Shown: piece after piece, positions 690 through 9,200 of the stretch | Numbering within the stretch: position 1 is the stretch's first letter | How the letters are laid out: every line of letters begins with the position of its first letter | From: Pseudomonadales bacterium | GTDB lineage: Bacteria > Pseudomonadota > Gammaproteobacteria > Steroidobacterales > Steroidobacteraceae | DNA: 9,200 bases | Assembly: GCA_020442965.1 (NCBI GenBank) | Contig: JAGRJB010000265.1 | Location: 1-9,200 of the forward strand | Direction: 5' to 3' | Made by a program: the position numbers and the translations under genes | The notes under the pieces: model-generated | Databases searched by the model: none | Told to the model about the DNA's origin: nothing | What the model saw: only the letters and a program-made list of their open reading frames with translations

Positions 690-1418
690 GTGAAGAGCAC
701 AATAGCCGTCCTTGCGGTCTCGCTAGCTTTCCTCGCCACCAATCCGAAGATCGCACAGGCGGCCGGGAACTCCGCCGCCAGCAGCGCATCAGGCCTCAGC
801 AACGCGATCGAGACGGTCGGGTTCGACACCAGGACCCGCGTCGGCTATGGCGGCATGCTGACGTTCGACCCGACGCCGATCGTGCTGTTCAAGTCCGGCG
901 ATGCGCTGCGTGACATGGCTGCGCTGAAATCGATCACCGATGTCGCGACCCACAAGGCGGCGCATCCCAAAAGCTGGACCACCTGGCGTCGCTCAGGCAA
1001 AGCCATCGAAATTCTGCAGGCCAAGGGCTGGCAGAAGATCACCTATACCCAGACCCTGGATCGGTTGCCGGCGGGCTACCAGCTTGTGGGCGCTTATCGG
1101 CGCTTGTCGGGCGGCGGCAATCTGGCGATCGGCGGCAACGCGGCGATCGCCGTCTGGTCGACGCTGAGTTTCGATCGCGCGGGAAATTTCGCGAGCGGTG
1201 GCGGCAGCGGCTCCTCCACCAGCAACGAAAGCGCCGGTACAACGACCAGTGTAGTCACGACCGGTCGTGCGCCTGATCGCTATGGCCGCTACCGCATCGA
1301 AGGTTACACGCTCACGCTCAATTATGCCGATGGCCGTGTCGAGCGGCGCATGATCGTCACCGACGTCAGCGATCCCGGGGTGATCTGGCTGGACGGCGAC
1401 GGTTATACCTCGCGTTAG
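690..1418 (+). CDS. Secreted protein of unknown function with Gly/Ser/Thr-rich linker
   Basis: I do not recognise a named family. The GTG start at 690 is chosen because GAGG (678-681) sits 8 bases upstream and because a signal peptide begins there: KST, a hydrophobic stretch IAVLAVSLAFLA, then a probable Sec cleavage after AQA (residue 24). The open frame continues further upstream without a plausible start. The mature part of the 242-residue protein has a first domain (about 40-168) with HPKSWTTWRRSG and WSTLSFDRAGNF. A low-complexity linker rich in Gly, Ser and Thr follows (about 168-192). The C-terminal beta segment (about 198-242) is GRYRIEGYTLTLNYADGRVE followed by RRM. Alternating beta patterns suggest a small beta-barrel or sandwich acting in the periplasm or outside the cell. 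There is no lipobox. It is divergent from argR and convergent with the membrane-protein gene, so it is probably monocistronic. Confidence 0.75.
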   Translation: MKSTIAVLAVSLAFLATNPKIAQAAGNSAASSASGLSNAIETVGFDTRTRVGYGGMLTFDPTPIVLFKSGDALRDMAALKSITDVATHKAAHPKSWTTWRRSGKAIEILQAKGWQKITYTQTLDRLPAGYQLVGAYRRLSGGGNLAIGGNAAIAVWSTLSFDRAGNFASGGGSGSSTSNESAGTTTSVVTTGRAPDRYGRYRIEGYTLTLNYADGRVERRMIVTDVSDPGVIWLDGDGYTSR

Positions 1419-1492: not shown

Positions 1493-1963
1493 TCAGGGCA
1501 TATCGATCCGTGAACGGGTATACCAGTGGATCAAGAAGGGCAATAACGTAGCGAGCCCCACGATCCAGTGCGCGAGCGAGGTCCATGCGCGCCACTCGGT
1601 GCTACCAATGTAGTACAGCGCGACGCCGGTCAGCATGAGCCAGGTAACAACGCCGAACAACCAGCCGCCCGAGGTTCGTCGCACCTTGGCCTTCCAGCCG
1701 CGCAGGACGTGATTGGGCCACAGCACACCAAACATCCAGGCCGCAGCCACGGCAAAGACGCCATGAGCTACTAACCACCCGTGCTGATAGGGGTGCACGT
1801 TCTCGAAGCCGAACTGATCGACACTCGTCACGAAGTAATGATAGATCAGCCATACGGCTCCCGTGACCCAGGTGCCCATCGAAATCACGTACAGGGTTCG
1901 ACGGCGACTCTTCGGCAAGACGCCGACGCGCGCGCTGCTCGTGGCGCGCTTCAATCGCTGCAT
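1493..1963 (-). CDS. Four-helix inner-membrane protein, possible heme-binding electron carrier (DUF4405-like)
   Basis: This 156-residue protein has four predicted membrane helices at about residues 24-45, 62-82, 100-119 and 130-148, after a basic N-terminus (RRR at 20-22). Histidines fall in or at the edge of helices: H42, H67, H85, H132 and H146. The pair H132/H146, 14 residues apart within one helix, resembles spacing that coordinates two stacked hemes in b-type cytochromes, and H67/H85 flank another helix. The overall look resembles small DUF4405/cytochrome-b-like membrane proteins found with flavinylation genes; this is pattern recognition, not a search result. Its ATG overlaps the apbE stop region by 13 bases, so translation is probably coupled. 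It may pass electrons from the quinone pool to the periplasmic FMN protein encoded at 4722-5243. Confidence 0.78.
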   Translation of the reverse strand: MQRLKRATSSARVGVLPKSRRRTLYVISMGTWVTGAVWLIYHYFVTSVDQFGFENVHPYQHGWLVAHGVFAVAAAWMFGVLWPNHVLRGWKAKVRRTSGGWLFGVVTWLMLTGVALYYIGSTEWRAWTSLAHWIVGLATLLPFLIHWYTRSRIDMP

Positions 1964-2895
1964 CCGAGCGTTCGCCAGCCATCGCGCGCGTGAAAGAGAA
2001 AGGCAGCCGCTCGATACTGATTCAGGATTTCAATAGAGGCACTCGCATCAGCTAACACGACTTTCGTCAGTGCATCCGCCACGGCGCAAAGCGGGGCAAC
2101 GACTGATACAAACTGCATACTGTCGACCCGTTCACGTGTGCGACCGTTCAAATGTGATCCGCGTGCCGCGGATTGCGTTGGCTGCAAAGATGCCGGCGCT
2201 GCGCCACTGCTCGCCAAACTCCCATCAGCGATCTCGATCACGGGCAGCTGCTCGGGCGGATGATGCGGTACGCGCAGCAGCGCCCGATCGCGCCACGGTC
2301 CATGCACCCGCAAGTCGCCACCGGCGTTGACACGAGCGATCAAAGACTCATCATCATTGGCATTCGCCATCCGTTCAATTGCGCGATCGACCGCGTAGCC
2401 CTTCGCGATTCCACTGAGGTCGATCCACAGCGGCCGGTGAAAGCGGATTCGATCGGGCTCGATCAGCTCGATATCGCGCCACGACGCCGCGGGATGCGGC
2501 GCGGGAGCATCGACGGGCCGCGGCAGCTGTCCGTCGTCGACGAGGCGTGCCGCCGTCGTAATGTCGAACAGACCGCACGATGCAGCGGACATCTGCAACG
2601 CCAGCCGCACGACTTGGTAGGTATGCCAGCTGACAGTAACGGCTTCGCGCGCGGCTTCACGATTGAGCCTGCTCACGTCACTACCAACTTCCTGAAAGCT
2701 CATCAGAGCGTGCAGTTCAGCGATCGTTGCAAAACCTGCGTCGATGTAGCGGTGCGCGACGGCGGCCGCAACACCGCCGACGAAAACGCGAACAATCGTT
2801 CCGAGTAGCGGCCGCGCCCGCTCCACGGTCACCTGGGTCGTGGTAGGAGCTATGGCCAGCCCGCGAGACGCTATAGAACTCCGACAGACGGACAT
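1951..2895 (-). CDS. apbE: FAD:protein FMN transferase (ApbE family)
   Basis: ApbE enzymes split FAD and attach FMN through a phosphoester bond to a threonine of a target protein, with Mg2+. Family landmarks in this 314-residue protein, in order, are RPLLGTIVRVFV (28-39), MSFQEVGSDVSRLNR (65-79), GLFDIT (108-113), IDLSGIAKGYAVD (158-170), VNAGGDLRVHG (189-199), ASSGA (228-232) and ADALTK (273-278), where D274 and T277 match the metal-binding pair. Unusually, no signal peptide or lipobox is visible, although most bacterial ApbE proteins are exported. The ATG at 2893-2895 has no clear Shine-Dalgarno sequence; in-frame upstream codons add no hydrophobic segment. It leads a two-gene unit with the membrane protein at 1493-1963 and is divergent from the operon encoding its likely substrate, the FMN-binding protein. 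Confidence 0.93.
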   Translation of the reverse strand: MSVCRSSIASRGLAIAPTTTQVTVERARPLLGTIVRVFVGGVAAAVAHRYIDAGFATIAELHALMSFQEVGSDVSRLNREAAREAVTVSWHTYQVVRLALQMSAASCGLFDITTAARLVDDGQLPRPVDAPAPHPAASWRDIELIEPDRIRFHRPLWIDLSGIAKGYAVDRAIERMANANDDESLIARVNAGGDLRVHGPWRDRALLRVPHHPPEQLPVIEIADGSLASSGAAPASLQPTQSAARGSHLNGRTRERVDSMQFVSVVAPLCAVADALTKVVLADASASIEILNQYRAAAFLFHARDGWRTLGCSD

Positions 2896-2973
2896 TTGTG
2901 GGTTCTGAGTGCGCGCTGGACCATGCTGCAGCGTAGAATGCCATAGTGTCAGAGCGTGCGGTACCGACAGCCG

Positions 2974-3012
2974 GGCCGCGAGGGGTTCGGGTCGGCCGCG
3001 TCGCGGCCTTTT
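2974..3012 (+). promoter_or_regulatory. Leader hairpins with T-tract upstream of the 3061 operon (possible attenuator)
   Basis: GGCCGCG occurs twice in the leader, at 2974-2980 and 2994-3000, and both copies can pair with CGCGGCC at 3002-3008. The proximal copy forms a tight hairpin (GGCCGC 2994-2999 with GCGGCC 3003-3008) directly followed by TTTT at 3009-3012, resembling a short intrinsic terminator. The distal copy forms an 8-base-pair alternative stem (2974-2981 with 3001-3008). The T-tract is short, and GC-rich DNA makes such pairs by chance, so regulatory function is speculative. Confidence 0.3.
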
Positions 3013-3060
3013 CGACTTTCCGATTCAGCACATGGCGTTTGCGCCAAGGAGCCTACGACT

Positions 3061-3405
3061 ATGGCTACTACTCCAGAAACAAAGCGACAAACCTACACCG
3101 TCGAGGCGATACCGTCGGACGTCAAGAACGGCGTCTTTCTCGGTAACCCGATGCTCGACAATCTGGTGTCGTGCGTGATCGCGATGGGGTCCGAGATGTG
3201 GACGACGAAGCGCCGCTTGAAGGTGCTCGAAGCGGTCATGTCCAAGGCAGGCGTCACGTCTGAAATGGTCGAGAAATACCAACCCACCGAGCAGGAACTC
3301 GCAGCGTGGGAGCAGGAGCGTGGCCGCTTCATCGAAATGACACTCGGCTCGCTGGCCAACGACGGCATACGCGGCGTCGGCGCCGACTACCCAGCGCGTG
3401 ACTAA
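3061..3405 (+). CDS. Small helical protein of unknown function, upstream partner of the methyltransferase
   Basis: This 114-residue protein has no signal peptide and no membrane segment. The ATG at 3061 is chosen because AAGGAG (3046-3051) lies 9 bases upstream; the frame is open further 5' but lacks a comparable ribosome site. The sequence looks almost entirely helical from residue 30 onward: NPMLDNLVSCVIAMGSEMW (29-47), a basic helix TKRRLKVLEAVMSKAG (49-64), EMVEKYQPTEQELAAWEQ (68-85) and RFIEMTLGSLAND (89-101). I do not recognise a named domain. It lies 54 bases upstream of the Tat-signal methyltransferase gene with a strong ribosome site between them, so the two are presumably co-expressed. 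A subunit or accessory role for the methyltransferase is inference. If its partner is exported and it is not, the two would meet only before export. Confidence 0.8.
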   Translation: MATTPETKRQTYTVEAIPSDVKNGVFLGNPMLDNLVSCVIAMGSEMWTTKRRLKVLEAVMSKAGVTSEMVEKYQPTEQELAAWEQERGRFIEMTLGSLANDGIRGVGADYPARD

Positions 3406-3459
3406 CACCCCATTGTCCGTAGGGCGCCAAAGCGTGCGCTTGCGAGAGGAGATCACATC

Positions 3460-4656
3460 ATGATCGGTCGTCGTACATTTTTCGGTGCCGCTACAGCTTC
3501 GGTTGCGCTCGGCAGTCTGTTGAAGAGCCAGGCCGCAGCCGCAGCCGCGCAGGCGGCGGGGCAAATCGCCGGCAACTACGACCCGCGCGGTATGGTTGGG
3601 CGACTCGAGCGCCTGGGCACGCTGGATCTCGAAAGCCAACAGGATTTTACGGAAGGCTTTCGGTTGATGCATGGCAAGATGATTCGCAAGGCGTCGAACG
3701 ATGCACTGGAGCGCGTGCTGGCGCGCAACGGCATCGACCCGACCACACCTCTGACAAAAGAAGAACTGATCGCGTTGGTCGAGAACGAGCCGGCAATCAA
3801 CATCGCGTCGAAGGCCTGGCTGGCCAATCAGCAAGTTACCTGGAAGTCATTGCAAGATCACTTCCATCGACACGCCGATGAGTATCTGAGCGAGATGGAC
3901 GCTGCCGATCGGGCCGGACCGGGCGCACTCGAGCTCAATCCGAGCATGGATGTTCCCGCTTACACCCGGCACGAGATCCATATTCAGCCAGGTGGTTACG
4001 TCGGCGATCCGTTCGCCGGTCACATGTATCACTATGGCACTAACAGCTTTTACATTGGGGTGATCGGTCACAATGAGCAGGACCAGATCCACAAGGGAAC
4101 GGCCGCGCGTATTCCTCTGCCGCAAGACGGCAAGGTAAAGCGGATTCTCGATATGGGCTGTGGTGTCGGCCAGATGACCGCGGCCATGAAGGAGCGCTTC
4201 CCGGATGCCGAGGTCTGGGGTATCGATATCGGCGGCCCGATGGTGCGTTACGCGCACATGCGTGCCGCCAATCTCGGTATCGGCGCCAACTTTGCGCAAC
4301 GTCTCGCTGAGGACACCAAGTTCCCGGACGGCTATTTCGACATTGTGGTTAGTTACATCATGCACCACGAGTTGCCCGCCCATATCACGCGCGCGGTCAT
4401 CGTCGAGGCGGAACGTGTCACTCGTCCGGGCGGCGTTTACTATCCGGTCGATTTTCTGAGCGGTGGCACCAAAATGCCGGCGCGCAACATGTACGGGCGC
4501 TGGTGGGATCATCGTTGGAACAACGAGGTCTGGAGCTTTGAGTACCACGGCCTCGATTTCACGCAGGAAATCGCCAAGCGTGCATTCACGATCAACAAGG
4601 CTACCCCAGCGGCCCTGCCCGGGTTTGGGGCTCGTCACGCAGTTCGCAATGCTTGA
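3460..4656 (+). CDS. Class I SAM-dependent methyltransferase with a twin-arginine (Tat) signal
   Basis: The ATG at 3460 follows AGGAG with good spacing. The N-terminus reads GRRTFFGAATASVALGSLL (3-21) followed by an Ala-rich stretch (25-34) with AxA cleavage options. This is a twin-arginine signal, although the position before RR is Gly rather than Ser/Thr. Residues about 40-220 form an extra N-terminal region of unknown fold that includes HEIHIQPGGYVGDPFAGHMY. The C-terminal Rossmann methyltransferase is complete: motif I ILDMGCGVGQMT (229-240), the acidic motif VWGIDIGG with D256, FPDGYFDIVVSYIMHHE (288-304), and RPGGVYY (322-328). At 398 residues it is long for a single-domain methyltransferase. 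The substrate is unknown. An exported SAM-dependent enzyme is odd because SAM is cytosolic. It sits between the small helical protein and the FMN-binding gene in one apparent operon. Confidence 0.88.
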   Translation: MIGRRTFFGAATASVALGSLLKSQAAAAAAQAAGQIAGNYDPRGMVGRLERLGTLDLESQQDFTEGFRLMHGKMIRKASNDALERVLARNGIDPTTPLTKEELIALVENEPAINIASKAWLANQQVTWKSLQDHFHRHADEYLSEMDAADRAGPGALELNPSMDVPAYTRHEIHIQPGGYVGDPFAGHMYHYGTNSFYIGVIGHNEQDQIHKGTAARIPLPQDGKVKRILDMGCGVGQMTAAMKERFPDAEVWGIDIGGPMVRYAHMRAANLGIGANFAQRLAEDTKFPDGYFDIVVSYIMHHELPAHITRAVIVEAERVTRPGGVYYPVDFLSGGTKMPARNMYGRWWDHRWNNEVWSFEYHGLDFTQEIAKRAFTINKATPAALPGFGARHAVRNA

Positions 4657-4679
4657 CGGGGACTGGACCTGGGTGCTGC

Positions 4680-4693
4680 CTGCTAGTTAGCAG
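4680..4693. repeat. Short perfect palindrome CTGCTAGTTAGCAG between operon genes
   Basis: Arms of six bases (CTGCTA / TAGCAG) flank GT in the 65-base gap between the methyltransferase stop and the FMN-binding start. No T-tract follows, so it is not a typical terminator. It could be a weak RNA processing hairpin, a protein site, or chance. Confidence 0.3.
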
Positions 4694-4721
4694 ACGGCAC
4701 CGGTCCGCTCGGATCACGCCC

Positions 4722-5243
4722 ATGTACTCGCGCTTTCTGTTAGTTCCCGTAGCGGCTATGGCGATCAGCCAGCCCGCGCCGGCGATGGATATTCAGACGC
4801 TGGAGGCGGCGCAGCAGAAGCTCGCTCCCGGCGCCAAGCTGATTCCATCGGATTTCAAACTGAGTCAGGAAGACTTTGACCGCCTGAAATCTGTCTATCG
4901 GGTGCCGGCACTCAGGCCCGCCGTCAAAGCGTGGCGGGTCGAGGGCGGCGGGTGGCTGTTTCTCGATCAGGTCTACGGCCTCAACGACATCGTCACCTAC
5001 CTCGTCGCCATCGATGCCCAAGGCGCCGTCAGTGGCATCGAGATCCTGGTCTGTGCAGAGGGCTTTTGCGGGCCATCATCAGCCGCGTGGCGCGCGGAGT
5101 TCGTCGGCAAGACCCATGGCAAATGGAATCCCGCCGAGGCCGTGACCAATATTTCGGGCACGACCCTCTCGAGCACGCACATTGCCGAGGGCGTGAAGAA
5201 GATTCTCGCCATCCACGCGCGCTTCTTGCCGACCAATCACTGA
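4722..5243 (+). CDS. Secreted FMN-binding domain protein, predicted ApbE substrate
   Basis: The ATG at 4722 is chosen because it begins a Sec signal peptide (SRFLLVPVAAMAISQPAPA, cleavage after A21) and has a weak GGA ribosome site 8 bases upstream; the frame upstream of it gives no sensible protein. Of 173 residues, about 65-170 form an FMN_bind domain: WLFLDQVYGLNDIVTYLVAI, then GAVSGIEILV, then WRAEFVGKTHGKW, and finally NISGTTLSSTHIAEGVKKIL (143-162). SGTT matches the ApbE acceptor motif SGAT, so FMN would be esterified to T148. The Ala-to-Thr change leaves the acceptor Thr intact. Two cysteines, C111 and C116 (CAEGFC), lie where I expect charged residues in related proteins. It probably acts in the periplasm as a one- or two-electron carrier, served by the ApbE and membrane protein encoded divergently. 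It ends 8 bases from the convergent receptor gene. Confidence 0.88.
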   Translation: MYSRFLLVPVAAMAISQPAPAMDIQTLEAAQQKLAPGAKLIPSDFKLSQEDFDRLKSVYRVPALRPAVKAWRVEGGGWLFLDQVYGLNDIVTYLVAIDAQGAVSGIEILVCAEGFCGPSSAAWRAEFVGKTHGKWNPAEAVTNISGTTLSSTHIAEGVKKILAIHARFLPTNH

Positions 5244-5251
5244 CAGGCGCG

Positions 5252-7789
5252 TCAGAAACTGTAAGTCATGCGTACGCCGTACACGCGCGGTGTCGGCAAC
5301 GAGAAGCGCAATTCGCTCTTGGTGGGTTGCAAGATGAACGTGAACGCATCGGTGCCCAGCAGCGCGGTCTGTAGAACCTTGTTGTCGGTCAGGTTGGTAC
5401 CAAACACCTCCGCGGTGACATGTTCGCCACGCACGCCGAACCGCGCGTTCAAATTGTTAGAGGCACCGACCTGTGTCGCGCCGGCGAAATCCGTGAGCTT
5501 GGCGCCCTGACGCTGGAAATCGAGGCGCCCGAACCAGTCAACCCCCTCGCGCAACTTATGTGAGTAGTCACTGGAGAACGACCAGGCCGTTTCCGGCGTA
5601 GTGGGCAGGCGCCGGCCGATCGCGCCGCTGAATTTCCCATAGATCAGATTGCAATCTGCGCAATTGCCGTCGCCCAACCCGTAGCTCTTGATCTCTGTCT
5701 TGTTGAGTCCGAAGCTTGCCGACAATCGAAGATGGTCGGTGGCCTGCAACTGAGCCTCGAATTCGACGCCCTTCAGCTCCGCCTCGCCGTTGTTGACGGT
5801 GATTCCAAACAGGTTGGCGACTCCCGTGACGACCACCGGGATCGAGTTCTGAACCTGGCCGTCGAGCCACTTGTCCTTGTAGAGCGTGAGCGTCGTGCGT
5901 GCGCGCCCGTTGAGCCAGGTGGATTTGACGCCGACCTCGAGGTTGTCGAGCTGCTCCTGGTCATAGGTGACGCCCGCATTCGGCACGATGGCGCGCAGCG
6001 CGTCGATGGTGGCTTGCGAGGAAGTGGCCAGGCTTGGGTTGAATCCGCCGGGCCGGTAGCCACGGGAGAACAGTGCGTACAATGTCGAGTTGGGCGCGTA
6101 TTCGTAGTCAATCGAGATGCGCGGTGCGAAGCTCTTGAAGGTTGCCTGCAACGGATTCGCTGCCGCGCCGGTGACCACCCGACCGTTACCGCCGACGATC
6201 GGCGTGGCCTTGATCTTGTCCCACTGATAGCGTCCTTCGACGCTGAGCGTCAGAGCGTCGGTGAAATCGAAATAGGCGGCGGCAAATACCGCTGGCGTTT
6301 CGACATCGTTCCTGGTGATCGACGCCACGAACAGCGGCCCAACGACCGATTCGCCGTAGACTGTCCCACCGGGTGAACCGGCCTTGAGGTAGTTAGCGCC
6401 GACGGTCCAGCGTAGCCGCTGATCGGCGGGTGAGGTGAGCCTTACTTCCTGGCTCCAGTCGCGTAACTTGCCCTGCGAAAGCAGCAGGAACTGCTGCCAG
6501 GGGACCCGCGTCGCCGGGTTGAGTGCATAGAGCGGGTTGGGCCGATCATGACCATCGCGAGTATTGAGATCGATCAGGGTCTGGGTCTTGTCGTTGTGCA
6601 TCGCGGACAGCGCACTCAGGTTGTAACCATCGGCGAATTCGTAGTCGATTCTAAGATCAGCCTGGAAAGCCTTACGGCTAAAGCCACCTTTGGTGCGAAA
6701 CGATGGATCGAAGACGAGCCAGTTTGGGTCCGGATTGAACAGCGCATTCTGCGTCGCGGCAGCGGCGGTGTCGTAGTCGCCCGAAATGACGTGGGCGGCA
6801 TATTCGTCTGCTTGCGGCACCGTGCCGCAGAAGTAGCCGAAGGATGCGCGCGAACCGGCGGTTTGACCGAGCGCAGCGGTCCCGGCGGGGGCTTGTGAAA
6901 ATGGCACGCAGGTACCATCTGGTGCGATACGCCCGTTGAACTCGCTCGACTTCAGCGCGCCTCCCGCCGGCGGGCCGTCATCATTTTTGAACGCGTTGAC
7001 ATACGCCTTGATCTTGAGTTGGTCAGTCGGCTTGTACACCAGGGAGCCCGAGATCGACTGTGTCTTTTGCTCGCCCAAGCGCCCGCCGATGACGCCGTTA
7101 TTGGCATAGGGCCCGCCGACTTTGGAATCACGATACGTGAGTCGCCCAGTCAATTTTTCCGCGACTAGCGGACCCTCCACGCTGATACTCGCATCGCGCG
7201 TGCCATAGGAGGCGCCCTCGAGCGAGACTTTGCCCTTGAACTCGTCACCCGGCTCGATCGTGACGAAGTTGATAGCACCGACGAACGTGGAGCGCCCGAA
7301 GTAGGCGCTCTGCGGGCCTTTCAATACTTCAACGCGCGCCACGTCGACGATCGCAGGTGGTTGGGCGCCGATCACGGGTGCGCCATCGACGAAGAGCTGT
7401 CCACCAGCGTTCAGCCCGGTGTTGTTCCCGAGATATAGGCCACGGAACACCAGGGCAGTGCTGGAGCGATCGTTCCGGCCAGTAGAACCCGTTTGGTTGA
7501 CGAAGTAGAAGCTTGGCGTCATCAACATGATGTCACCGAGCTGCTTGATGCCCTGCGACTCGATGTCTTTGGCGGAAAACGCGGTTATCGCCAGGGGCAC
7601 GGTCATGAGGTTTTCCTCGACCTTGCGGGCGGTGACCATCACTTCATCGAGCATGCCGCTGGTTTGGGAGACCTGCGGCGCATTCTGAGCGAATACCGGA
7701 GGCGCGGATATCGGGCTAATCACTAGAAGCGCGGTGGCCAGCACCCAAGCTGCCGCGCCGAAGCCGAGACTTCGGTCAACTCTGCTCAT
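5252..7789 (-). CDS. TonB-dependent outer-membrane receptor
   Basis: This 845-residue gated beta-barrel imports a scarce ligand across the outer membrane using TonB/ExbBD energy. The ATG at 7789 follows a strong purine-rich ribosome site (GAGGGGGG on the minus strand, about 7795-7803). A signal peptide covers residues 1 to about 34 (hydrophobic AAAWVLATALLVI, cleavage near VFAQ). LDEVMVTARK (47-56) fits a TonB-box region. The plug follows, with VPLAITAFSAKDIESQGI, LVFRGLYLG, QLFVDGAPV and VARVEVLKGPQSAYFGRST. The barrel runs to the C-terminus YGVRMTYSF, with the expected terminal aromatic residue. Paired cysteines occur in two predicted extracellular loops (about 295-322 and 705-710). Nothing identifies the ligand; siderophore, cobalamin-like, sugar and terpenoid substrates are all possible. 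It is convergent with the FMN-binding gene and has its own 150-base upstream region. Confidence 0.96.
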   Translation of the reverse strand: MSRVDRSLGFGAAAWVLATALLVISPISAPPVFAQNAPQVSQTSGMLDEVMVTARKVEENLMTVPLAITAFSAKDIESQGIKQLGDIMLMTPSFYFVNQTGSTGRNDRSSTALVFRGLYLGNNTGLNAGGQLFVDGAPVIGAQPPAIVDVARVEVLKGPQSAYFGRSTFVGAINFVTIEPGDEFKGKVSLEGASYGTRDASISVEGPLVAEKLTGRLTYRDSKVGGPYANNGVIGGRLGEQKTQSISGSLVYKPTDQLKIKAYVNAFKNDDGPPAGGALKSSEFNGRIAPDGTCVPFSQAPAGTAALGQTAGSRASFGYFCGTVPQADEYAAHVISGDYDTAAAATQNALFNPDPNWLVFDPSFRTKGGFSRKAFQADLRIDYEFADGYNLSALSAMHNDKTQTLIDLNTRDGHDRPNPLYALNPATRVPWQQFLLLSQGKLRDWSQEVRLTSPADQRLRWTVGANYLKAGSPGGTVYGESVVGPLFVASITRNDVETPAVFAAAYFDFTDALTLSVEGRYQWDKIKATPIVGGNGRVVTGAAANPLQATFKSFAPRISIDYEYAPNSTLYALFSRGYRPGGFNPSLATSSQATIDALRAIVPNAGVTYDQEQLDNLEVGVKSTWLNGRARTTLTLYKDKWLDGQVQNSIPVVVTGVANLFGITVNNGEAELKGVEFEAQLQATDHLRLSASFGLNKTEIKSYGLGDGNCADCNLIYGKFSGAIGRRLPTTPETAWSFSSDYSHKLREGVDWFGRLDFQRQGAKLTDFAGATQVGASNNLNARFGVRGEHVTAEVFGTNLTDNKVLQTALLGTDAFTFILQPTKSELRFSLPTPRVYGVRMTYSF

Positions 7790-7939: not shown

Positions 7940-8713
7940 CTACTTGTGGAGACGTGCCAGCGTTCGTTTGAGCGCGAAGTGTTGGTAGCTCGTCAGCGCT
8001 AGTGCACGCAGCTCGGTCACGCGGTGCGCTCGCGCGACCTCGAGCGCGATCCAGCCGTTGTGTCCGAGATAGGCGGGTATCGAGTAGCGCGGATCCTGTG
8101 TCAGCAACGCTTGCTGGTCTGTGCCTGCCCAGAATGCCGCGCGCCACCCCTCGTGCTGGCAGTAGGCCCTTGCAAATACACGCTTGCCGACGCGCCATAC
8201 GGGTGAGCCGAACTGCGTCCCTTCGCTGGTCGCGGGCAATGCAAGACAAACGGCGCGCATCGTCGCGAGCACACGCTGGCCACGTGGGGTGTTAGCCGGG
8301 TCGACGTCCGCCACACTCGGTCGCGCCCGTGGCGCGGGCGACTTAGGTGTCGGACCCACGCTTTCGACCAGCGCCGGGGGCGCAATCTGCTCGTATGCCA
8401 TTCGCACCAGTTCCCTGACACGATCCCACGCCAGCCCCTGGTCCAGCCGTACGCCTAACCACCCACGCGGTCCAACATAGGGCGGTACAAAAAAGTGCCG
8501 CGGCTCATCAGTCACGTATTCGCCTTGCGCGCCGCTCGGCATTGGCAGCCAGAGGGCTATTCGGCCATCGCCGTGATGATTGACCGCATACATGACGAAC
8601 ACTTTGCCGCCCTGGACCCGAAACGTACGCATGCCGTGCGCTTGCCTTTCTGCAACTCGTGGAAACGCCAGACAGAGCTTGCGCAGCGCGCGCTCCAGAT
8701 CATTGGTTGCCAT
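7940..8713 (-). CDS. Tandem YjbR/MmcQ-domain protein
   Basis: This 257-residue protein has two copies of the YjbR/MmcQ fold (CyaY-like, often annotated as a DNA-binding protein, function poorly known). The first copy covers about residues 1-112, with GGKVFVMYAVNHHGDGRIALW, RHFFVPPYVGPRGWLGVRLD and MAYEQIAPPAL. The second covers about 150-257, with VWRVGKRVFARAY, DPRYSIPAYLGHNGWIALEV and LTSYQHFALKRTL. A Pro/Ala-rich linker joins them. Single-domain family members are about half this length, so this is a duplication or fusion. I chose the ATG at 8711-8713 over the upstream GTG at 8737 because GAGGGG (minus strand, 8723-8728) is 9 bases upstream. That ribosome site overlaps the alkB stop codon, implying translational coupling. 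The Lys found in many copies is not preserved in both. Confidence 0.87.
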   Translation of the reverse strand: MATNDLERALRKLCLAFPRVAERQAHGMRTFRVQGGKVFVMYAVNHHGDGRIALWLPMPSGAQGEYVTDEPRHFFVPPYVGPRGWLGVRLDQGLAWDRVRELVRMAYEQIAPPALVESVGPTPKSPAPRARPSVADVDPANTPRGQRVLATMRAVCLALPATSEGTQFGSPVWRVGKRVFARAYCQHEGWRAAFWAGTDQQALLTQDPRYSIPAYLGHNGWIALEVARAHRVTELRALALTSYQHFALKRTLARLHK

Positions 8714-8726
8714 CGTGCTTCGCCCC

Positions 8727-9200
8727 TCATCGACCACGCCGAAACGTCAGGTTATAGCGCAACGATCCGGTCAGTGGGTGTTGTGCAGGCTTGACCGGCC
8801 GTACCGCGTGATAACGCAAGCGTGCAGGTCCACCCCACACCAAGACATCGCCGTCGGTCAACGCCACAGGTCGGCCCTTGCCGCCGCGCGTGAGTCCGTA
8901 GAACACGAACGTCGCCGGTACGCCGAGTGATACCGAGACGATGGGTTGCTCGAAGTTGGTTTCGTCGGCATCGCGATGCGCTCCCATGCGTGCACCGGGC
9001 TCATAACGATTGATCAAGCAGGCGTCAGGATCGAATTCCCCGAAGCCGGCGTGTGCCGCGGCAGTTAGTGCAAGCTGGCGAAATGCGGCTGGCATCGCCA
9101 GCCAGGCACGTCTAGCGATGGGATCGAGCGGTGAATATCGGTAGCCGCTGCGATCGCTGACCCAGCCGACCGGCCCGCAATTGGTCATCGCCACCGACAT
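8727..9200 (-). CDS. alkB: Alkylated-DNA repair dioxygenase AlkB (N-terminus beyond the window)
   Basis: AlkB oxidises N-alkyl lesions such as 1-methyladenine and 3-methylcytosine using Fe(II), 2-oxoglutarate and O2. The visible 157 residues begin with MSVAMTNCG, which is internal in E. coli AlkB (around residue 57), so roughly the first 50-60 residues lie past position 9200. The Met at the window edge is not the start. The catalytic parts are all present: YSPLDP, DACLINRYEPGARM, the iron ligands H75 and D77 in AHRDADE, IVSVSLGVPATF, GDVLVWGGPARLRYHAV with the distal His, and SLRYNLTFRR with the two 2-oxoglutarate/catalytic arginines. The gene's 3' end carries the ribosome site for the YjbR-domain gene, making a two-gene unit. 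Confidence 0.95.
   Translation of the reverse strand: MSVAMTNCGPVGWVSDRSGYRYSPLDPIARRAWLAMPAAFRQLALTAAAHAGFGEFDPDACLINRYEPGARMGAHRDADETNFEQPIVSVSLGVPATFVFYGLTRGGKGRPVALTDGDVLVWGGPARLRYHAVRPVKPAQHPLTGSLRYNLTFRRGR

What the first reader, a model, noticed from the sequence alone, without database searches (positions are those of the whole stretch)
1493..7789. Possible envelope system: flavinylation genes, Tat-signal methyltransferase and TonB receptor in one locus
Seen: ApbE plus a histidine-bearing four-helix membrane protein on one strand; a small helical protein, Tat-signal methyltransferase and covalent-FMN protein on the other; and a TonB-dependent receptor ending 8 bases from the FMN protein. 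Known: ApbE, FMN_bind protein and a redox membrane protein make extracytosolic electron-transfer units. Inferred: a receptor-imported substrate is reduced and/or methylated in the envelope. A methyltransferase in such a unit is not a combination I know to be described.
Basis: partly seen in the sequence, partly recalled or inferred. Interest (0 to 1): 0.7.

Follow-up and report, generated by a model that had tools for sequence, protein, structure and literature searches.

The report
Exported methyltransferase wired to flavin electrons
Several bacteria keep together the genes for a methyltransferase predicted to be exported from the cytoplasm, a likely flavin electron-transfer set and often an outer-membrane import channel, a combination that would likely let them chemically alter imported compounds in the cell envelope.

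Summary
The genes are as described. The flavin set (FMN_bind protein, ApbE, membrane protein with four invariant histidines) is a conserved trio that also stands alone: 11 of 11 distant loci hold it without the methyltransferase pair. The methyltransferase and its 114-residue neighbour belong to a large family, 1 to at least 46 copies per genome, mostly without flavin genes: 9 of 78 related loci hold the FMN gene. In the window's own branch the link is tight. FMN protein and membrane protein occur in the same 18 of 41 genomes, including all 17 from which a methyltransferase of that branch was fetched. FMN gene and methyltransferase lie within 1 kb in 14 of 18 (0.8 expected), in several gene orders. 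A twin-arginine leader is present in 87 of 90 intact members of the window's clade and 0 of 23 outside it. My literature searches showed no description of this. The TonB receptor is a frequent but unspecific partner. Export, flavinylation, heme, substrate and methyl transfer are untested; the supply of SAM outside the cytoplasm is the open problem.

The parts
1493..1963 (-). Four-helix membrane protein (MEM), likely di-heme cytochrome b: four invariant histidines, two on each of two predicted helices (by eye)
   Evidence: Window H67, H85, H132, H146 invariant in 15 of 15; three of them in 31 of 31 and the fourth in 30 of 31, the miss being a gene cut by a contig end. DUF4405 and cytochrome b561 below cut-off in relative L043.
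1951..2895 (-). ApbE, FAD:protein FMN transferase, without a visible signal peptide
   Evidence: PF02424 116 bits; core residues in 29 to 31 of 32 homologues, no leader seen by eye before the conserved start in the copies of this unit
2896..3060 (.). 165-base intergenic region between the two divergent arms
   Evidence: best match to a recalled Fur-box consensus 8 of 19, no background computed
3061..3405 (+). SMALL, 114-aa helical partner of the methyltransferase family
   Evidence: Within 700 bases of the methyltransferase in 44 of 96 Tat-clade rows and 17 of 23 others, contig ends not excluded; AlphaFold2 mean pLDDT 76, long helices; no Foldseek PDB match at E 10
3460..4656 (+). Class I SAM methyltransferase-fold protein with predicted twin-arginine signal (about residues 1-35)
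   Evidence: AlphaFold2 mean pLDDT 90 with residues 1-12 and 14-38 below 50
4722..5243 (+). FMN_bind protein with leader-like N-terminus, flavinylation motif SGTT and a CX4C pair
   Evidence: PF04205 28.1 bits; motif glycine in 44 of 44, T at the acceptor place in 40 of 44 and S in the other four; CX4C in 20 of 24 FMN genes next to the pair, 3 of 9 elsewhere
5252..7789 (-). TonB-dependent receptor, convergent with the FMN gene
   Evidence: PF00593 107 bits, PF07715 44 bits; 59-62% identical copies sit next to MEM/ApbE in five other genomes

Best explanation
The window holds a recurring gene unit: a methyltransferase with a conserved twin-arginine leader that is predicted to send it to the periplasm, its likely partner (a small helical protein), an FMN-binding protein, the ApbE that likely attaches the FMN, and a membrane protein with four invariant histidines that likely holds two hemes; together they would pass electrons from the quinone pool to the periplasm, where the methyltransferase likely modifies a compound that the neighbouring TonB receptor would bring in. 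Shown: the genes, their motifs, the conservation of the leader, the shared distribution and the adjacency. Predicted: heme binding, flavinylation and export. Inferred: the direction of electron flow; that the substrate is a receptor-delivered organic compound or metal chelate, perhaps phenolic; that FMN-borne electrons reduce it and the methyltransferase alkylates it (for instance capping a phenol so that it no longer binds metal or re-oxidises); and that the small protein is a subunit or helper, since it also accompanies family members that lack the leader.
For: FMN protein and MEM in identical sets of 18 of 41 genomes; these include all 17 genomes from which a methyltransferase of the 21-row branch was fetched (branch support 91, under the starred level of 95) and 1 of the other 24 (Fisher P 1e-10; relatedness and unfetched methyltransferases ignored). 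FMN gene within 1 kb of a methyltransferase in 14 of 18 genomes, the window's included, against 0.8 expected. Gene order varies while the set stays: MEM-SMALL-MT-FMN-ApbE all on one strand in L111; MEM, ApbE | SMALL, MT, FMN divergent in the window, L194, L196 and L197; SMALL, MT, FMN facing MEM, ApbE in L043. The receptor faces the FMN gene at 8 bases in the window but MEM at 16 bases in L197. Leader in 87 of 90 intact rows of the window's clade and 0 of 23 others; TatC in 39 of 41 genomes. Haliea sp. E1-2-M8 has one family member, beside SMALL and FMN, with a second tatC and a TatA/B-like gene 2.8 kb away; its MEM is on another contig. Residues of the SAM site are conserved. A tannase/feruloyl esterase follows the methyltransferase in L045.
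Against: Most family members have no flavin neighbours (9 of 78 loci with the FMN gene), and the trio exists without the methyltransferase pair in 11 of 11 distant loci, so neither part needs the other. G569 (two of three copies), G570 and G572 have MEM-ApbE-SMALL-FMN with no methyltransferase in between. No source of periplasmic SAM is known to me. ApbE of the unit shows no signal peptide although its presumed substrate has a leader; the genome's second ApbE (L040) does have one. Tat-like leaders are not significantly commoner among near neighbours of the methyltransferases (18 of 257 against 7 of 193, P 0.15). TatC was not found in 2 of 41 genomes, one of them (G570) FMN-holding. The receptor family is not specific (36 of 41 genomes). 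Record titles are nearly all proteobacterial, so counts are not independent.
Confidence: 0.47

Rival explanations
1. Iron or metal reductase with a passenger: the FMN_bind, ApbE and MEM trio reduces receptor-delivered ferric chelates, and the methyltransferase pair merely sits there and does something unrelated.
For: Trio without the pair in 11 of 11 distant loci, one directly after an Nramp-family metal transporter gene (L136) and several near outer-membrane-type proteins (Porin_O_P from weak to over its cut-off, DUF6662). Flavinylation clusters with PepSY-like proteins and TonB receptors are read as iron reduction and reported Fur-repressed in Caulobacter (passages of PMC8238504; a table passage of PMC3751524).
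Against: Adjacency of methyltransferase and FMN gene in 14 of 18 genomes through several gene orders. No good Fur-box match in the window's divergent region (8 of 19; no background computed, and L041 reaches 12 of 19). The receptor does not reach the siderophore-receptor cut-off (109 against 223.5 bits).
Confidence: 0.25
2. The exported methyltransferase-fold protein does not transfer methyl groups: it carries SAM as a resident, unconsumed cofactor, as RdmB is thought to, and takes reducing equivalents from the FMN protein for an oxygen-dependent hydroxylation or decarboxylation.
Confidence: 0.12
3. The methyltransferase is not exported: the leader is a short membrane tether or a misread signal, and the enzyme works with cytosolic SAM at the inner face of the membrane.
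For: Cytosolic SAM would be available; SMALL and the unit's ApbE show no signal peptide by eye; leaderless paralogues exist in the same genome.
Against: Twin arginine and uncharged stretch conserved in 87 of 90 intact rows of the clade while the letters between vary; the leader lies outside the confident part of the model.
Confidence: 0.12

Closest known systems
ApbE-dependent extracytosolic flavinylation systems (eLife 2021, PMC8238504; passages read)
   Same: ApbE, FMN_bind protein with an [S/T]GA[S/T]-like motif, membrane electron carrier, sometimes a TonB receptor
   Different: Membrane protein without a Pfam match, so not PepSY, MsrQ, NapH, DsbD or NQR/RNF by that test; adds an apparently exported methyltransferase and its partner; the word methyltransferase does not occur in the paper's main text
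DUF4405/FezC-type flavinylation-associated cytochromes (mSystems 2024, PMC11334425; passages read)
   Same: Membrane protein beside apbE with four conserved histidines fit for two hemes; DUF4405 sub-threshold in relative L043
   Different: About four helices by eye against six stated for DUF4405; below the Pfam cut-off
Class I natural-product, quinone and terpene methyltransferases (UbiG, GPP C-methyltransferase, RebM, DsyB, DnrK/RdmB)
   Same: SAM-binding fold and motifs
   Different: Predicted Tat leader, own N-terminal helical part, partner gene SMALL, many paralogues per genome
SciP / DUF1153
   Same: Faint match over about 43 residues of SMALL
   Different: Below both cut-offs; linked to methyltransferases

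Membership tests
ApbE/FMN_bind flavinylation system | ApbE enzyme encoded | tested here: met
   PF02424 116 bits against cut-off 25.6
ApbE/FMN_bind flavinylation system | FMN_bind domain with [S/T]GA[S/T]-like acceptor motif | tested here: met
   PF04205 28.1 against 22; ISGTTLS, acceptor T in 40 of 44 and S in the other four
ApbE/FMN_bind flavinylation system | Extracytosolic leader on ApbE or its substrate | tested here: inconclusive
   FMN protein starts MYSRFLLVPVAAMAISQPAPAMD, leader-like by eye; ApbE has none visible; no predictor run
ApbE/FMN_bind flavinylation system | Covalently bound FMN | not testable with these tools
   Needs protein
DUF4405-type cytochrome | Pfam PF14358 over its cut-off | tested here: not met
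   No match for the window protein; 18.9 against 26.7 in L043
DUF4405-type cytochrome | Four conserved histidines for two hemes | tested here: met
   Invariant in 15 of 15; heme itself not testable
PepSY-like flavinylation system | PepSY domain protein | tested here: not met
   No Pfam match for the membrane protein
Class I SAM methyltransferase | Fold and SAM motifs | tested here: met
Class I SAM methyltransferase | Methyl transfer | not testable with these tools
   Needs assay
Tat substrates | Twin-arginine leader | tested here: met
   87 of 90 intact rows of the clade by a pattern rule of my own; one of the three misses has RR with a proline nearby
Tat substrates | Tat-dependent export | not testable with these tools
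   TatC found in 39 of 41 genomes, own genome included
SciP / DUF1153 (for SMALL) | Score over curated cut-off | tested here: not met
   22.8 against 23.5; 21 against 100
TonB siderophore receptor TIGR01783 | Score over curated cut-off | tested here: not met
   109 against 223.5; PF00593 and PF07715 are met
RdmB-type SAM-dependent hydroxylase | SAM required but not consumed | not testable with these tools
   Fold match only, tied with methyltransferases

The most novel reading that the evidence does not exclude
A periplasmic SAM enzyme run on electrons: the methyltransferase-fold protein is loaded with SAM in the cytoplasm, exported folded through Tat with the cofactor locked in, and uses SAM as a permanent charge or template rather than a methyl donor, while a di-heme cytochrome and a covalently flavinylated FMN protein supply the reductant for chemistry on receptor-delivered compounds. 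The large paralogue sets would then be an envelope toolbox with different redox partners.
Probability: 0.12. Interest if true: 0.9.

Novelty: new variant of a known kind. Interest (0 to 1): 0.63.

Why it matters
SAM is taken to be a cytosolic cofactor (general knowledge). A clade in which 87 of 90 intact members keep a twin-arginine leader, in genomes with up to at least 46 family copies, leaderless ones counted, makes it directly testable whether SAM-binding enzymes work in the periplasm and how they are supplied. The tie of one branch to an ApbE, FMN and cytochrome-like set gives a new candidate partner for flavinylated electron transfer, many of whose end uses are still unknown.

Tried and rejected
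Fur control: best match to a recalled consensus 8 of 19 in the window's divergent region and 9 to 12 in nine relatives (12 in L041); no background was computed, so this is only no support. General Tat enrichment around the methyltransferases: odds ratio 2.0, P 0.15, rejected as support. SMALL as a SciP-like regulator: below cut-offs. SMALL as a Tat chaperone: unlikely, as it also pairs with leaderless paralogues (17 of 23). A nitrile-hydratase link for SMALL: E 0.28 over 23 residues, ignored. Foldseek with the SMALL model: no match at E 10. Receptor as a diagnostic part: too common. Literature: searches for Tat or periplasmic methyltransferases, for apbE with methyltransferase and TonB and for Steroidobacteraceae with methyltransferase and TonB showed no description of this combination; of these only listings were seen, plus one table passage of PMC3751524. 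Passages, not whole papers, were read of PMC8238504, PMC11334425, PMC10491745, PMC4938201 and PMC6708511. The library lacks most subscription papers.

Dropped rows and limits: one search kept the best 80 of 84 relatives, 78 distinct loci. The tree (quick method) kept 119 methyltransferase rows with profile score at least 180 and more than 230 residues matched, identical rows once; only fetched methyltransferases are in it. Searches covered one locus per genome, 41 genomes. One search left out loci repeating others (L001-L021, L119-L123, L128-L134, L192), and part of its printed output was cut. One search counts only loci with an FMN gene; MEM, ApbE and receptor loci on other contigs (L207-L211) are described. 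I ran no signal-peptide or membrane-helix predictor.
Full report
What is there. The window carries ArgR (78-548, -), an unassigned protein (690-1418, +), then the six genes of the finding, then a YjbR-domain protein (7940-8737, -) and an AlkB-like protein at the edge (8727-9200, -). The receptor gene's stop lies 8 bases from that of the FMN gene, on the opposite strand, so it is convergent and not an operon member. The window is contig C192 of a 3.0 Mb bin that is 67.6% complete. The same methyltransferase lies on 22 contigs of up to 149 kb in the protein database and the same small protein on 35, up to the same length, so the genes are not an oddity of one assembly.

The methyltransferase family. 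The window's genome gives 19 matches to the methyltransferase at E 0.001, 13 at E 1e-30 with the family profile, and ten matches to the small protein at E 1, all ten on contigs that also hold a methyltransferase match. It holds two ApbE genes and one FMN_bind gene. A scan of bacterial genomes gave 78 distinct related loci. Of these, 9 hold the FMN gene, 3 ApbE, 3 the membrane protein and 7 a receptor that the window-derived profile detects. In 41 genomes the family has 1 to at least 46 members, 46 being the scoring limit; tandem arrays occur in L073, L078 and L084.

The leader. Of 96 rows in the clade that holds the window's protein, 6 are cut by contig ends. Of the other 90, 87 pass a pattern rule of mine for twin arginine followed by an uncharged stretch; one of the three misses (L073) has the twin arginine with a proline nearby. 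None of 23 rows outside that clade pass (clades from the tree, midpoint-rooted for drawing, support 90 for the clade, long branches flagged). The structure model is confident from about residue 40 onward (mean pLDDT 90) and not before. TatC is found in 39 of 41 genomes, the window's own included; the misses are G570 and G580. No signal-peptide predictor was available, so export is predicted and not shown.

The enzyme. The model is a class I SAM-binding fold with its own N-terminal helical part. Foldseek puts DsyB first, and the re-alignment ranks UbiG, geranyl diphosphate C-methyltransferase and many others within one Z unit. Seventeen columns are invariant over 45 sequences, among them G237 and D256, which fall in the SAM-binding motifs as I recall them and as the aligned methyltransferases show, and H303-E304 after the fourth strand. 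The active-site reading is inference.

The flavin trio. The FMN_bind protein, ApbE and membrane protein also form a unit on their own. FMN relatives at 29-39% identity were found in 4 of 368 other genomes sampled from the class (E 1e-20) and 7 of 195 others from the order (E 1e-10). In these 11 loci, 11 of 11, ApbE and MEM lie near, and none has the methyltransferase pair beside it; L139 has a weak methyltransferase match (7e-11) 6 to 7 kb away, and weaker ones (about 0.005) were ignored. One trio follows an Nramp gene (L136). Others stand near proteins with Porin_O_P matches (weak to over the cut-off) or clear DUF6662 matches. MEM has four invariant histidines in 15 of 15 aligned sequences, two on each of two predicted helices, the layout of a di-heme cytochrome b; that placement is read by eye. 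ApbE has no visible signal peptide in the copies of this unit, while the FMN protein has a leader; the other ApbE of the window's genome (L040) has a leader-like start and could act outside the cytoplasm. This mismatch is unexplained.

The link between the two modules. In the 41 genomes, FMN protein and MEM occur in exactly the same 18. These include all 17 genomes from which a methyltransferase in the 21-row branch of the tree with the window was fetched (support 91); the eighteenth is G571. Fisher's test gives 1e-10, but the genomes are related, were chosen by methyltransferase similarity, and may hold unfetched members of the branch. In 14 of 18 genomes, the window's included, an FMN gene lies within 1 kb of a methyltransferase; in 17 of 18 within 1 kb of a methyltransferase or SMALL. 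Under random placement with the observed copy numbers 0.8 genomes are expected (which takes copies as independent and the 46-copy cap at face value). Of 33 FMN genes, 18 are within 1 kb of a methyltransferase, 24 within 1 kb of a methyltransferase or SMALL, and 15 each within 3 kb of MEM and of ApbE. Methyltransferase, MEM and ApbE all lie near one FMN gene in 6 of 18 genomes (G000, G562, G567, G576, G591, G596). In G561, G566 and G573 the two halves end at contig edges in a way that fits the same layout. G569 (two of three copies), G570 and G572 have MEM-ApbE-SMALL-FMN with no methyltransferase in between, which shows that SMALL can stay with the trio.

The receptor. The window receptor's relatives (E 1e-90, at most 23 candidates scored per genome) occur in 36 of 41 genomes. 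Among the 17 other FMN-holding genomes, the best-scoring copy is the one beside MEM and ApbE in five (G566, G567, G573, G576, G591; 60-62% identical), and in G575 the only copy lies about 2.9 kb from MEM. In the remaining eleven the best copy is elsewhere or none was found, though G563 has a 45% identical copy beside an FMN gene. A receptor lies within 5 kb of an FMN gene in 5 of 18 genomes. It is a frequent partner, not a defining part.

Other context. Haliea sp. E1-2-M8 holds one family member, beside SMALL and FMN, and a second tatC with a TatA/B-like gene 2.8 kb away; its MEM is on another contig. A tannase/feruloyl esterase follows the methyltransferase in L045, and MoCoBD, FAD_binding_2, amine oxidase and berberine-bridge-like proteins occur in the surroundings of other members, several with Tat-like leaders by a pattern. 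Enrichment of such leaders is not significant. The CX4C pair of the FMN protein is in 20 of 24 FMN genes next to the pair and 3 of 9 others.

Mechanism. I commit to an envelope electron-transfer unit: quinol to MEM to FMN protein, working on a receptor-delivered compound that the exported methyltransferase modifies. The gene set, motifs and linkage are shown; heme, flavin, export, direction and substrate are not. The largest difficulty is SAM in the periplasm. If the enzyme uses SAM without consuming it, as is held for RdmB, which needs O2 and a reductant, the difficulty goes and the flavin partner makes sense; that is the novel case, at 0.12.

Novelty. In the two flavinylation surveys the word methyltransferase does not occur in the main text, and the searches listed no description of a Tat-exported methyltransferase family or of this gene set. 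It is filed as a new variant of flavinylation-based electron transfer.

Noticed in passing
L060 5869-6962 (-): Second tatC (243 bits) and a TatA/B-like gene (22.2 bits, cut-off 21) 2.8 kb from the only SMALL-MT-FMN set found in Haliea sp. E1-2-M8; may be a dedicated translocase.
   Followed up: partly
window 1951-2895; homologues: ApbE of this trio has no visible signal peptide although its presumed substrate has a leader; the genome's second ApbE (L040) has one.
   Followed up: partly
window 4722-5243: CX4C pair in the FMN protein, mostly in copies next to the methyltransferase pair (20 of 24 against 3 of 9); role unknown.
   Followed up: partly
L199, L201, L202, L203: MEM-ApbE-SMALL-FMN with no methyltransferase in between; methyltransferases of the same branch lie on other contigs of those genomes.
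   Followed up: partly
L073, L078, L084: Tandem arrays of 5 to 8 methyltransferase genes.
   Followed up: no
L085, L086, L087, L089, L090, L091, L094, L113: Divergent pairs of a leader-bearing and a leaderless methyltransferase, each with its own SMALL, in bins titled Gammaproteobacteria.
   Followed up: no
L045 9334-10986; L068 3-1208: Tannase/feruloyl esterase genes, directly after the methyltransferase in L045 and about 7 kb away in L068, hinting at phenolic substrates.
   Followed up: no
window 690-1418: 242-aa protein with leader-like N-terminus by eye, no Pfam or NCBIfam match.
   Followed up: no
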